Assembly (NCBI RefSeq): GCF_000497045.1 | Contig: NW_015961963.1 | Location: 62,001 to 126,000 of the forward strand | Direction of reading: 5' to 3' | Length of the DNA stretch: 64,000 nucleotides | Origin: Kalmanozyma brasiliensis GHG001 | Taxonomy: Eukaryota > Basidiomycota > Ustilaginomycetes > Ustilaginales | In this document: positions 30,385 through 52,687 of the stretch, piece by piece | Position numbering within the stretch: the stretch's first letter is position 1 | How the letters are laid out: each line of letters begins with the position of its first letter | Program-made: the position numbers and the translations under genes | The notes under the pieces: model-generated | What the model was told of the DNA's origin: nothing | The model's input: only the letters and a program-made list of their open reading frames with translations | Database searches by the model: none

Positions 30385-33300
30385 ATGATGACGGGCCACG
30401 AACACAAGGTCGTCTTTGTCTATGCTTCCCATCAGCAAGTCTTGCTTCCTTCCACTTTCCGCCTTCTGCATCTTGCATCTCGCTACGATGTCTTCCTCAA
30501 AGCATTCCTCGACTCGGCTTACAGGGAACTGCTGAGCGAGACGGAGGCAGCTTCAAGTGCGCGGTCCGTCGTGAACGATCACTCGAGAGTCTTCACCCTT
30601 CCCAAATCCTTCGTCGACCTCGGTCAGGTCGCCTCTGCTCAGGATCTTCGCACTCACGCAATCTCTCTGACGACATTGGCGCAAATCGCGGTGGTCTTGG
30701 CCTCCAGGGACGACTTCAAGCAAGCGATGCGGGCCGACTTTGCAGCAGCTTGGGATCCCGAATCGTCCTTGACCGTCTCGCTTCTCCAAAACGTGGACGT
30801 CACCAACACGCTGGACGTGATCTCTAAAGGCATTGAGATGGTCCGTCTGGCTTGCTGGATCGAGTACCTTTTCCACATTGGCTACACACATGGCATCAGT
30901 GGCGAGAAGGGACGATTCTTTGTCAGCGGAGTCACGGACGGAGTTGCCGCCGTCGCAGACAAGTGTCAGAAGACGGGGCAGCGCTGCGAGAGCACCATGG
31001 CAGGTCTTGCGATTGGGTGCACCAGCACCGCGGTGCTTGAAGACTTGCTGTCGGGCAGAGATGACGACGCTAGCCAAGAATTGTTCTCGAACCGAAAGTC
31101 TGTCTTTCCGTCGCTGGACATCAACGAGTGGGCACAGCTCCGACCAGATCTGGTGTCTCGTCTACGAGAGCGCAACATCAAGGTCGCAGTCGACGGTCAC
31201 ACGATATCACACCAGGCAGCCTCGCCAACAACCCAGCTTTCCGTCAACCTCGACCACGTCTTCACGAGCCTGGACTTCGGTCGATCGCCACAGCGCTTTC
31301 AGAGCACGTTGGATCTCCTGCGCGAACAAATCGCGTCGTCACGTATCTACGCTCCACGCATCGAGCTACTGCTTTTGGGGGGATCGATGAGGGAAAGATT
31401 CGCGATCAACGTGGCAAGCACCTTCAAGTCGCTCGAGCTTCATCACGTGCCGGTCAGACTCCTTGACCTGCTCTATCCAAAGGACTCTCACCGCTTCGGA
31501 GATGAGCCTGTCAAGCTGTCCAAGGTGCAAGGCGATCCCATCAACCAGATCGCCATCATCGGGATGTCTTGCAGAGTGCCCGGAGCTCAGGATGCAGATG
31601 AGCTATGGGCGATGCTCAAGCAAGGCAGGGACATGTGCGAAGATGTGAGTCCTGGCAAGCGCTCAAGGTCGCTTGTAGCATGTCGTTTCCGTGCTGACCA
31701 GGCTGTCACCCTCTCTTCTGAACTTGGCTTGTCCACAGATTCCCGAGAGGCTCTATCGCTATCAAGACTATCATTCAGCATCTTACCGAGAGCGCAACGT
31801 GATGCGAGTCAAGACGGGCAACTTCGTGGCCGAGCCTAGCTTGTTCGACAAGAGCATTTTGGGCGAAGCTGCTTCCGACGAAGACTGCGCCAACATGGAC
31901 CCGCAGCAGAGGGTCGCCATCCTGACCGCGTTCGAGACGCTGTCGAAAGCTGGCTACGGCTTTTCACCTCACCGACATCCGAAGCAGCCCGAGCAATGGA
32001 GCACCCACCTCGCCTACTGCAGCGACGACTACCGAGAGCATCTGAGCCAGAAGATCGAGGCCGACTTTGTGCAAAACACGCATCGCGCTCATCTCGTCGC
32101 CAAGGTCAATGAGACTTTCGGCTTCCGTGGCGAGGCTTGCACGTACGACACGGCATGCAGCTCCGCTCTGGTTGCGGTCGAGGCAGCTTGCAACAGCTTG
32201 CTGGCCGGCGAGACGTCGGCAGTCTTGACGGGAGGAGTCAATATCCTCACTCAGCCTCAGATCACCATCGGACTCGACAGAGGCTTCTTCCTTTCGGCTT
32301 CCTCGCAGTGCATGACGCTGGACGACGCAGGCGCTGGCTATTCTCGTGCCGATGCCGTCTCCATCATGCTGCTCAAACGTCTACCAGACGCGGTGCGAGA
32401 CGGCGATCCGATCTTGGCGGTCATCTCGTCGGCCGCCACCAATCACTCTGGCGAGTCGTTCTCGATCACTCACCCTCACGGTCCCACACAAAAGAGGCTC
32501 TACCAATCAGGTATGATCGCCAGCAAGACGCTTCCCGAGGACTACAGCTACATCGAGATGCACGGCACGGGAACACAGAGCGGAGACTTGGAGGAGGTGA
32601 CCGGCATTGTCAAGACCTTCGGCGAAGGAAAGAGGGACGCACAACCGCCGCTCGTCCTCGGCTCTGTGAAGGCCAACGTCGGGCACTCGGAAGCTGCTTC
32701 CGGCGCCACCAGCATGATCAAAACCGTCCAGATCTATGAGCACGGTGAGGTGCCTCGGCACATTGGCATTCGCACTCAGCTCAACACCAAGCTGCCGCCT
32801 CTGGATGGGTTTCTGGTGCCGATGCAGGAGACCACGCTGGACAGCATCGACCACGCCTTCACCCTTGTGGACAACTTCTCTGCGGCCGGCGGAAATTCTT
32901 CGATCGTCATGGATCGCGGCACGCTGTACCGGGACCGACTGAAGAGAATGAGCGAAGACGCCCATACTACAACAGCAAGTCCGGCCGAAGAGTCCAGAGG
33001 CAAGCACCACCTGCTCTTCGTCACTGCTGCTACTTCGTTCTCCTTGGACGCCCAGAGGCGCAGATTGATCGCCTTCCTGGATGCCAACAAGTACGTCACC
33101 TTGACAGAATTCTGCAGTACCGTCTCGCTCGGTGACCCTATGCTCGCCCATCGTCTGATCGCCATTCCCTCCAGCATCAGCGAGGCCAAGACATGCTTGA
33201 GCAGCCAAGAGTCTGTCTTCGTCGACGCTAGTCGCTGGAAGGGCAAAGCTTGCACCATCGGTATCGTCTTCAGTGGCCAAGGGTCACAGTATCTCGACAT

Positions 33301-52300: not shown

Positions 52301-52687
52301 GCGGCGATGAAAGTCGACGAGGGTCCGGAGATCGGAGAAGCAGTCAAACGGTGGAAGAACGGTCAGCAGCTCCACCTCGGATTGTCGCTGCTCGATCGTA
52401 GTAGGCCTGCCGGATGCTGAGGCGTCAATGTGACGATTCGCGACGCTCTGAAGTTCGGTGCGGACGGCGTCCAAAGCGAGAGACAAGAATGCAGATAGTT
52501 CAGCGTAGTGGCGTGAGAGCCCGAGGATGACGTCGAGGCTGCTTAGAAAGTCGGACCCTTGCGAGCCGAAGACAACGACGGGAGGTTTGGGCAGGGGGCC
52601 GTAGGGTGGTGCCGGGGGCTTCTGTTCCTCCGAGCTATTGCACGGACTTATCTGGTCGAAGGAGGAAAAGGCCGAGTCGCACGACAT
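46334..52687 (-). CDS. PKS-B: non-reducing PKS, SAT-KS(dead)-AT(remnant)-PT(remnant)-ACP-ACP-TE
   Basis: 2117 residues, one exon; the ATG at 52687 is the first in frame. SAT (about 30-350) is intact, with Cys191 (GFCTGAL) and His339 (SPYHTPAL). KS (about 490-905) keeps Cys665 in an abnormal context (SLECSA). It has Ser798 where HGTGT should start (EASGYHTQQGE) and Ala843 in place of the NIGH histidine (NIGAGE). The AT region (about 1030-1150) is a 120-residue remnant joining the FVFQTP start to the WIKI end, without GHSxGE. The PT region (about 1235-1560) lacks the GHxxxG catalytic His segment. Two complete ACPs follow, with Ser1651 (LGLDSLMS) and Ser1780 (LGMDSLMS), then TE with Ser1935 (GWSFGG) and His2091 (ANHFTL). 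The open frame is undisturbed over 6.3 kb, so this is selected, not decaying. It should load starters and carry chains for PKS-A. Confidence 0.92.
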   Translation of the reverse strand: MSCDSAFSSFDQISPCNSSEEQKPPAPPYGPLPKPPVVVFGSQGSDFLSSLDVILGLSRHYAELSAFLSLALDAVRTELQSVANRHIDASASGRPTTIEQRQSEVELLTVLPPFDCFSDLRTLVDFHRRNHITDPVINGVLLCLLQTASVVAVYCVAQANGPGNEPMTASVQLNEAWKALSEPCSHLLGFCTGALSAFSLRQLAEVQSSTMPLNIWTYAKDAIKVIRICFWISLRSAHARLRLTQGDSIATPSENWSLIVSVKDSDYVEKVHLRLRLFNELEQQRPLHEPVPLVVTAIALNQISIGGPPKQLARFKSYLIEHMGAKCRVLPLKIYSPYHTPALDHDVDLVMLDLQRRSLINDSPLPPSQKVLWETVNASVLREDSLRAALRVIIASNLSATADWVKVSEELVLHQADFGSAPLASMVIVSVGPGIGLAADLQTRLLRLRAETPSSNLVKVIDVPSLLSEHMSNLGHSIPKAVLLPQPDVDGEEIVVVSMACRFPGDVRTPEQLWTCLETGRSTVTEIPKHLFDIDAYYGDGINQTKARHMHALPEDVIKSMDARLFSMSPKEIEQLDPQHRLVMLCSYEALERAGYSAEANSPSAFDGKRIAVCMSASWDDYRENASWNIGSYFITGNIRAFIPGHVSFSLKWEGPSVSVDSLECSAVSAIQWSRRALLSGQCDVALTGAVTVLTQPQMFIAMDKEGILSRTGTNATFSSKLDGKTRGDGCGVLLLKRRSTALTDGDTILATLPAARTTYHGYSDDVEEAGALQSQFLTRVMSEAGVSASDIVHIEASGYHTQQGEATEFDSFKRLLDQAHVSHDTRPEDRISVASSRPNIGAGEAVSAMASVIKAVLMLERGSVPRQVSITHPSELQVKIAEACASSALFVPIQAQMLPSAQDRKGQRLILVNSLASTESHGVVLVGAPTSGGDAAMHHSASNIASTRTETAWIFVLSAKTKESADMMKKALINFLQREVNLADLSYSLACRRTHHPFRLSVVASDQDELIRRLRGADFVEAKARADLPPLGFVFQTPDPSSCQSLQACFVSTLGLRNRYEDLTVGLVSTNKAQSPDRDLRLMQLCVFALLTDCGVHPSAIEGDANAKLLAMLSEQCADVQEALSTISNSGGPDRHLWIKIDDIVSISAPSSAGQITQSPQSADPKELHTSLLATLGRLHQQGYTIRWIELFRPHLARLSFINTLPTYPFHLQQHWMEYHDRNLLPRVPLIQGSSPAVEKTVSEPVDTNDFEAPTQLLLTKQIGAQQSSRTYRADLAEEAELIFLETRSPCAMMVELMAESIREATESIEGTNLDCDLLLCDLGFRDAAEHWSRDRSITISVQCAKRLASETEGYVQFRAGDDTPRIGGCEFVLVERGSILKRWSILQGMVLDRIAAVKEEGELFSATFVYKTLLSDPDSRVKSIRAAYLSAQSSDAVFSMAVPPREPGSAHGISALPSITSGLEDCARWYAHSMDSQIDAGLGFLSVEELVLCNHWLEELDRASSTRPGYVVYISRSSREPVVSPHEFGINILVLNTDDEIVAELSRVRLGEVDRVPSKAASRQAPVSPPLAAAGTKAAPSENPTISAHDPAPRVAATQPVDSKAVPVASTGRAMDTFNKVLGVLAAELGIAVEEMKPGVKFADLGLDSLMSLVCISTLEALHLGFEIPQSLFLECDSPAELLQWIREQAGDDADGDDTQHQGAVPATAAEEAPASPHFPPMADVSPAQMSKDSKETHSNSAVEEAFKTIRTTIETELGVAEGSIDGEANLADLGMDSLMSLLVLGNLTGALPIELPSSLFMDCTSLREIHAFLAAELGEPSSNGATVSEAVTQPPPGKAVNIIVPPAKKPVLLRQGSDPSCSTPLFLLPDGSGMSTVYQNFHAIDRPVYSLNSPYLADATTWTGGIAPIAQHYLASMQLVQPIGPWLVGGWSFGGMVAFEIARLLATSNGPASDRVAGLFLLDSPCPILYPPLPMSIVDWIFTAPEVKDIAPPALSDKLVKHFKATVDSLVGWKPSPVELGDKNKIPKTWYIVANHPLPGKIADIKEVNETVKWLFRPNRAEKSGADGWQQLLPVGTIGVSPIAEANHFTLVREPAVGSVAQCLQEACRAALPL

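What the first reader, a model, noticed from the sequence alone, without database searches (positions are those of the whole stretch)
30385..52687. Two PKSs with mutually exclusive sets of working domains: a candidate obligate split synthase
Active-site inspection shows strict complementarity. PKS-A: KS C/H/H, AT GHSLGE and PT H/D intact; SAT nucleophile and ACP absent. PKS-B: SAT GFCTG and two ACPs intact; KS lacks both histidines, AT is cut to about 120 residues, PT lacks its His segment. Both keep a TE. Both frames are intact over 6 kb, so each is under selection. The simplest reading is a heteromeric iterative non-reducing PKS in which PKS-B loads the starter and carries the chain while PKS-A elongates and cyclises. 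I recall that U. maydis Pks3 and Pks4 were proposed to act as heterodimers, so the principle has precedent; the residue-level partition for this locus is what I add.
Basis: partly seen in the sequence, partly recalled or inferred. Interest (0 to 1): 0.95.

Follow-up and report, generated by a model that had tools for sequence, protein, structure and literature searches.

The report
Fungal polyketide synthase split in two
In smut fungi and their relatives one pigment-type enzyme appears to be divided between two giant genes that lost opposite working parts long ago, so that neither looks able to work without the other; the broken condensing part of one half is nevertheless kept almost unchanged, as if it were a structural partner.

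Summary
Confirmed and strengthened. The window is Kalmanozyma brasiliensis GHG001. PKS-A (30385-36403 +, one intron) keeps KS Cys560/His695/His736, MAT Ser1032, PT His1377/Asp1570 and a TE. Its N-terminus is predicted to fold as a SAT but has no nucleophile, and it has no ACP. PKS-B (52687-46334 -) keeps SAT Cys191, two ACPs and a TE, but lacks a working KS, MAT and PT. The split recurs in 22 PKS-A and 22 PKS-B rows (some fragments) from Ustilaginomycetes and Exobasidiomycetes; the PKS-B KS nucleophile is acidic in 22 of 22. That dead KS is PKS-B's most conserved domain (80% identity; AT and PT remnants 22% and 29%), arguing for a structural role like bacterial KS-beta/chain length factor, not decay. 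No other PKS-type KS was found in this genome. Limits: both TEs are intact, six early-branching PKS-B rows keep PT, and nothing biochemical is shown. The pair idea is in print (Pks3/Pks4; pks1/pks2 in 2026). The residue partition, conserved acidic KS and age are what this adds.

The parts
30385..36403 (+). PKS-A gene, 1974 aa: pseudo-SAT, KS, MAT, PT, TE; no ACP
31645..31738 (+). PKS-A intron, 94 bases, GTGAGT...CACAG
   Evidence: public protein P0124 has the same splice
30385..31539 (+). PKS-A pseudo-SAT, residues 1-385: SAT fold predicted, no GxCxG nucleophile
31537..32938 (+). PKS-A active KS (spans the intron); Cys560 at 32156-32158, His695 at 32561-32563, His736 at 32684-32686
33236..34183 (+). 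PKS-A malonyl-acyltransferase, GHSLGE, Ser1032 at 33572-33574
34496..35473 (+). PKS-A product-template domain, His1377 at 34607-34609, Asp1570 at 35186-35188
   Evidence: TIGR04532 200.3 bits over cut-off 168
35756..36403 (+). PKS-A thioesterase, Ser1835/Asp1862/His1958 (range includes the stop codon)
46334..52687 (-). PKS-B gene, 2117 aa, one exon: SAT, inactive KS, AT remnant, PT remnant, ACP, ACP, TE
51659..52573 (-). PKS-B SAT, Cys191 (GFCTG) at 52115-52117
   Evidence: PF16073 62.4 bits
49913..51220 (-). PKS-B inactive KS: Glu664 (50696-50698) in place of Cys, Ser798 (50294-50296) and Ala843 (50159-50161) in place of both His
   Evidence: most conserved domain of PKS-B
49208..49630 (-). 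PKS-B acyltransferase remnant, about 140 residues, no GHSLG motif, 22% mean identity among orthologues
48008..49015 (-). PKS-B product-template remnant, no catalytic His or Asp, 29% mean identity
47618..47854 (-). PKS-B ACP1, Ser1651 at 47735-47737
47234..47455 (-). PKS-B ACP2, Ser1780 at 47348-47350
46334..47104 (-). PKS-B thioesterase, Ser1935/Asp1966/His2091 (range includes the stop codon)

Best explanation
PKS-A and PKS-B are two halves of one iterative non-reducing PKS that work only together. Shown from sequence: the catalytic residues divide between them. Inferred steps: PKS-B's SAT loads the starter on PKS-B's own ACPs. PKS-A's MAT charges the same ACPs with malonyl. PKS-A's KS condenses and its PT cyclises. 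A TE on either chain releases the product, probably a pigment or melanin precursor. A 1:1 heterodimer joined through the two KS domains would hold exactly one working SAT, KS, MAT and PT, two ACPs and two TEs. I think the inactive, highly conserved KS of PKS-B is the non-catalytic dimer partner of PKS-A's KS, as the chain length factor (KS-beta) is in bacterial type II PKSs, and may help shape the chain-length pocket. The pair probably arose by duplication of a complete nrPKS followed by reciprocal loss before Ustilaginomycetes and Exobasidiomycetes parted (or before the pair was passed between them). Loss of PT from PKS-B came later, in Ustilaginales. The confidence below is for obligate joint action; for the mixed KS dimer as such I give about 0.55.
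For: Partition across orthologues: in PKS-B, KS nucleophile acidic in 22 of 22 (19 Glu, 3 Asp), both KS His lost in 22 of 22, no GHSLG in 22 of 22, SAT Cys in 21 of 22 (the other is a 1162-aa fragment). In PKS-A, KS Cys/His/His in 21 of 22 (P0139 lacks the KS part), MAT Ser in 22 of 22, PT His and Asp in 21 of 22 (P0144, 1065 aa, lacks PT). Of 13 PKS-A rows that reach the SAT region, 12 have no GxCxG before the KS; P0141 has one at an odd place (see against). Of 20 PKS-A rows that reach the TE none shows an ACP signature in the ACP place, and none of the listed proteins P0124-P0145 carries an ACP domain. Controls: 19 of 19 nrPKS keep KS Cys, first KS His, MAT Ser, PT His/Asp and ACP1 Ser; second KS His 18 (1 gap), SAT Cys 14 (4 start later, 1 Gly).
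Pairing: 11 named species show both genes, 9 of them on one contig, counting equal contig lengths as one contig. Trees of A and B mirror each other, including a branch that goes against taxonomy in both; distances correlate, r 0.972, 10 species, 0 of 5000 permutations as high.
No other partner found: in this genome the other long KS, AT and SAT matches lie in one 3685-aa frame on contig C23, FAS-like in make-up; the rest are four partial KS matches in frames of 127-508 aa and one partial AT match in an 804-aa frame.
U. maydis pks1, pks2 and lac1 rise together in one mutant (only lac1 in a second), and Ust1 is named as their regulator (passages).
Against: No biochemistry or complex structure; no multimer prediction could be run. 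Six PKS-B rows keep PT, so complementarity was not always complete. Tilletiaria PKS-A (P0141) has a GFCAG stretch at residue 331, about 200 residues nearer the KS than the SAT nucleophile of control P0041 lies, so a SAT-like motif is not wholly excluded in that row. SAT is dispensable in tested mushroom nrPKSs (PMC10401856, passages), so its absence from PKS-A alone would prove nothing; the ACP loss carries the argument. The PKS-B model has mean pLDDT 70 and pTM 0.45, and the stretch just before Glu664 is under 50. Sisterhood of A and B has support 93/90, but AU tests do not reject B basal (p 0.221) or A basal (p 0.226). Only one gene of the pair was listed for five named species (U. hordei, M. 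antarcticus, T. frezii, U. bromivora, P. flocculosa); the lists are capped at 120 rows and clustered at 90%. PMC13208730 reports pks2 homologues in all 15 other species but pks1 in 13, with only pks2 in U. hordei and M. antarcticus, and ascribes this to contig ends. Mirrored trees are expected of any co-inherited genes and do not prove contact.
Confidence: 0.8

Rival explanations
1. The two proteins complement each other in trans but as separate homodimers: a PKS-B homodimer is a SAT/ACP donor that docks on a PKS-A homodimer. The KS of PKS-B is kept only to hold the PKS-B homodimer together. (This shares the joint action of the best explanation and differs in the complex.)
For: KS and linker are the usual dimer core of nrPKSs (recalled), so a dead KS could be kept for homodimerisation; nothing here distinguishes homo- from heterodimer interfaces.
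Against: Homodimerisation alone does not explain an acidic residue at the nucleophile in 22 of 22 rows or the seven PKS-B-only fixed KS residues.
Confidence: 0.25
2. PKS-A works with another carrier (FAS or NRPS carrier, or a stand-alone ACP), and PKS-B is a separate non-elongating enzyme, for example a starter transfer and release protein.
For: The genome has ten further PP-binding matches outside the pair (12 in all), and both proteins keep a TE in the window.
Against: The other ten matches lie on other contigs, in frames of 67 to 4144 aa, none at the place of a KS match; PKS-A and PKS-B are mostly retained and placed together and their trees mirror each other.
Confidence: 0.08
3. PKS-B is a decaying duplicate of PKS-A.
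For: KS, AT and PT catalytic residues are gone.
Against: Open frame over 6.3 kb here and long proteins in many other species; SAT, KS, ACP and TE conserved at 57-80% while the AT and PT remnants drift; SAT and ACP active residues kept.
Confidence: 0.02

Closest known systems
U. maydis pks1/pks2 (UMAG_06414/UMAG_06418), teliospore melanin
   Same: Same family of fungi, two PKS genes called adjacent and, by locus number, three genes apart as here; loss of pks1 alone stops melanin; already suggested to be one functional system (PMC13208730, passages). Most likely the orthologous locus.
   Different: Orthology was not tested with U. maydis sequence, and which gene is pks1 was not settled. No residue-level partition, inactive-KS analysis or age is given in the passages I read.
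U. maydis Pks3/Pks4 (orsellinic acid, triacetic acid lactone)
   Same: Two PKSs proposed to act as heterodimers (review PMC10098057, passages; the original paper is not held).
   Different: Subtelomeric cluster with Pks5, Cyp4, Vbs1 and regulators, reported only in U. maydis 521; this pair lies among genes of housekeeping type. Pks3/Pks4 sequences could not be fetched.
Bacterial type II KS/CLF (KS-alpha/KS-beta)
   Same: Obligate pairing of an active KS with an inactive KS that lacks catalytic residues; the channel at their interface sets chain length (PMC12664062, passages).
   Different: Here both are embedded in 2000-residue type I nrPKS chains and group with nrPKSs. Heterodimer and chain-length role are inferred. 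CLF usually has Gln at the nucleophile (recalled); here Glu/Asp.
SAT-less basidiomycete nrPKSs (clade XII, CoPKS1/CrPKS1-3)
   Same: Basidiomycete nrPKS without a working SAT (PMC10401856, passages).
   Different: They have their own ACP and act alone; PKS-A has none.

Membership tests
Canonical fungal non-reducing PKS (SAT-KS-MAT-PT-ACP-TE on one chain) | Full set of working domains on one polypeptide | tested here: not met
   PKS-A lacks SAT nucleophile and ACP; PKS-B lacks working KS, MAT and PT
Canonical fungal non-reducing PKS (SAT-KS-MAT-PT-ACP-TE on one chain) | Descent from nrPKSs by KS phylogeny and PT domain | tested here: met
   A and B fall with canonical nrPKSs against the outgroup; PT TIGR04532 in PKS-A. 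No agaricomycete nrPKS knowingly included.
Heteromeric nrPKS pair of the Pks3/Pks4 kind | Two neighbouring PKS genes with complementary domains, both present | tested here: met
   9 of 11 named species with both genes have them on one contig, by equal contig length
Heteromeric nrPKS pair of the Pks3/Pks4 kind | Both proteins needed for product; physical complex | not testable with these tools
   needs deletion and protein work
KS-beta / chain length factor (works-like question) | KS fold without catalytic Cys and His | tested here: met
   model confidence moderate
KS-beta / chain length factor (works-like question) | Conserved non-Cys residue at the nucleophile position | tested here: met
   Glu/Asp in 22 of 22; Gln of CLF is recalled
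KS-beta / chain length factor (works-like question) | Membership: descent from the bacterial type II CLF lineage | tested here: inconclusive
   KS trees place it with nrPKSs, but no CLF row was in those trees
KS-beta / chain length factor (works-like question) | Heterodimer with an active KS; sets chain length | not testable with these tools
   no multimer modelling or assay available
U. maydis pks1/pks2 orthologue | Reciprocal sequence match to UMAG_06414/UMAG_06418 | not tested
   no row named U. maydis was listed; position and distribution agree

The most novel reading that the evidence does not exclude
A fungal type I megasynthase has evolved, independently of bacteria, the logic of the type II KS/chain-length-factor pair: an obligate heterodimer of two giant synthases in which one KS lost all three catalytic residues, gained a conserved acidic residue at the nucleophile and was kept as a structural, perhaps chain-length-setting, partner. 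This arrangement is as old as the split between Ustilaginomycetes and Exobasidiomycetes, or was passed between them as a pair.
Probability: 0.5. Interest if true: 0.87.

Novelty: new variant of a known kind. Interest (0 to 1): 0.72.

Why it matters
It would be a natural, ancient and complete split of an iterative megasynthase, with each half recognisable by which active sites it lost, and a eukaryotic parallel to the bacterial KS/CLF heterodimer. It gives a concrete explanation for why loss of one smut PKS gene alone abolishes melanin and for earlier heterodimer proposals. It offers a ready system for asking how two dimeric megasynthases sort into heterodimers and whether a dead KS sets chain length. 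It also warns that annotation that counts domains gene by gene can misread such genes as broken.

Tried and rejected
Decay of PKS-B: rejected by domain conservation. Missed ACP exon in PKS-A: none found. A third PKS supplying the missing parts: none found in this genome (counts there are lower bounds). PKS-B KS as a decarboxylase like KSQ: unlikely, since both His are gone too (the need for His is recalled).

Vertical inheritance alone: AU tests reject holding the Exobasidiomycete rows together in both trees (p 5.93e-05 and 3.91e-65). The rows tested include unnamed P0144 and P0245, placed there only because they group with Tilletiaria, and the test came after one search had shown the tree. 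PKS-B PT remnant fold: the model shows alternating strands and two long helices there, but the structure comparison covered almost only KS-AT parts, so it stays open. Mirror-tree correlation is weak evidence, as any co-inherited genes correlate.

Exceptions checked. Tilletiaria PKS-A (P0141): a Cys falls in the SAT column of one alignment within AAGCDSD, and a GFCAG stretch lies at residue 331, an unusual place; unresolved. Two PKS-A rows hold a G-x-D-S-L string, P0140 at the start of KS and P0145 at the end of MAT, not in the ACP place, and Pfam finds no ACP in either. Nine of 22 PKS-A rows do not cover the SAT region. P0145 scores over the SAT cut-off (24.0 over 22.8) although its nucleophile column is Val. 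PKS-B ACP and TE motifs are not found in every row: two G-x-D-S-L in 19 of 22, one in P0020 and P0245, none in the 1430-aa P0018; TE motif in 18 of 22. PKS-A TE: Ser 20, Asp 19 (one Glu, one Ser), His 20 of 22.

Paper searches for a chain length factor link in fungi or Ustilago returned none that hold all terms; searches gave listings from which the cited papers came. Novelty is claimed only against these searches in an open-licence library; Reyes-Fernandez 2021 could not be read and Islamovic 2015 was seen only as a citation.

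
Full report
What the locus is. PKS-A and PKS-B match the public proteins of Kalmanozyma brasiliensis GHG001: PKS-A equals P0124 apart from the first Met, and PKS-B equals P0004 from residue 136 onward. The window's contig (C16, 257526 bases) has the length listed for P0124's contig. K. brasiliensis belongs to Ustilaginales. 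The genes lie convergently, about 10 kb apart. Between them are a frame with a superoxide-dismutase C-terminal domain (36594-37502 -), an Ndc1 nucleoporin frame (37950-39977 +) and a 1297-aa frame without Pfam match (41954-45847 +). This is not a rich tailoring cluster.

How general it is. Three protein searches (lists capped at 120 rows) gave relatives from Ustilaginaceae, Testicularia, Violaceomyces, Thecaphora, Tilletia and Tilletiaria, which span Ustilaginomycetes and Exobasidiomycetes. In 22 PKS-B rows the KS nucleophile is acidic in all (19 Glu, 3 Asp), both KS histidines are gone in all, and no row has GHSLG; PT His and Asp survive in 6 early-branching rows and are absent in 16. In 22 PKS-A rows the KS triad is present in 21 and uncovered in one fragment. 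Of the 13 PKS-A rows that reach the SAT region, 12 have no GxCxG before the KS, and Tilletiaria P0141 has one at an odd place. Of the 20 that reach the TE none has an ACP signature in the ACP place, and none of the listed proteins P0124-P0145 carries an ACP domain. The 19 controls were picked by me from the same hit lists. They keep KS Cys, MAT Ser and PT His/Asp in 19 of 19. Some early-branching proteins still carry traces of the lost parts: in Tilletia a weak SAT match in PKS-A (E 0.0079) and a weak AT match in PKS-B (E 0.0046), and in unnamed P0145 a SAT match over the cut-off without the Cys. This fits descent of both from complete synthases.

Evolution. In KS trees A and B are each one clade (100/99 and 100/100). 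They are sisters at 93/90, but AU tests do not reject either being basal (p about 0.22), so one duplication is likely, not proven. Separate trees of A and B have the same unrooted shape: Ustilaginaceae, then Testicularia, then Violaceomyces; Tilletiaria with an unnamed row; and Tilletia with P. flocculosa (A) or Thecaphora (B) and an unnamed row. That last grouping conflicts with taxonomy, and AU tests reject holding the Exobasidiomycete rows (one of three unnamed in each test) together in both trees. The pair therefore seems to have been inherited, duplicated or transferred as a unit. Eleven named species show both genes; in nine they share a contig, judged by equal contig length, and in Violaceomyces and Tilletiaria they do not. 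For five more named species only one gene was listed.

No other partner in this genome. Searches of the K. brasiliensis assembly find long KS, AT and SAT matches only in the pair and in one 3685-aa frame on C23 that looks like fatty acid synthase (make-up recalled). There are also four partial KS matches in frames of 127-508 aa and one partial AT match in an 804-aa frame. Of 12 PP-binding matches, two are PKS-B's ACPs and none of the other ten lies at a KS match (counts are lower bounds).

Prior work. A 2023 review states that U. maydis Pks3 and Pks4 act together as heterodimers to make orsellinic acid and triacetic acid lactone (passages). A 2026 survey of 16 Ustilaginaceae reports pks1/pks2 with synteny in most species and suggests they may together form a complete system because deleting pks1 alone blocks melanin (passages). 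It found pks3-pks5 in U. maydis 521 only. pks1, pks2 and lac1 are induced together in one U. maydis mutant, only lac1 in a second, and Ust1 is named as their regulator (passages). Mushroom nrPKSs can work without SAT (passages), which lowers the weight of the SAT half of the partition. Type II KS/CLF is described as an obligate heterodimer of an active and an inactive KS whose interface channel sets chain length (passages). The searches found no paper that holds all their terms linking a chain length factor to Ustilago or to a fungal nrPKS heterodimer.

Verdict. The split-synthase reading is well supported by sequence, with its key step (a mixed complex) still inferred. The added claim, a KS-beta-like inactive KS under strong constraint, is the most novel part and can be tested directly.

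Noticed in passing
52289-52648, minus strand (PKS-B residues 14-133): The public K. brasiliensis model P0004 (1997 aa) skips about 120 residues at the start of the SAT that the window reads through without a stop and that S. reilianum P0005 has; the public gene model looks wrong.
   Followed up: partly
28061-28750, minus strand: A serine hydrolase of the FSH1 family lies about 1.6 kb before PKS-A; FSH1-type hydrolases release polyketides in some fungi (recalled), but no link was tested.
   Followed up: no
proteins P0142, P0143, P0145, P0258, P0022, P0023: Tilletia groups with P. flocculosa in the A tree and with Thecaphora in the B tree, against taxonomy; these may be a second, paralogous pair, perhaps related to U. 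maydis Pks3/Pks4.
   Followed up: partly
protein P0020 (Violaceomyces palustris PKS-B): Only one ACP motif is found and the KS stretch recovered is short; possibly a gene-model error rather than real loss.
   Followed up: no
protein P0141 (Tilletiaria anomala PKS-A), residue 331: A GFCAG stretch that looks like a SAT motif lies about 200 residues nearer the KS than expected; its meaning is open.
   Followed up: partly
proteins P0020, P0021, P0022, P0023, P0258, P0245: PKS-B still carries PT His and Asp in these early-branching rows, so the partition was completed step by step.
   Followed up: yes
G000:C23:430996-440829: A 3685-aa open frame with SAT-like, AT and KS matches, FAS-like in make-up; one TAG is counted inside the SAT match.
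   Followed up: no
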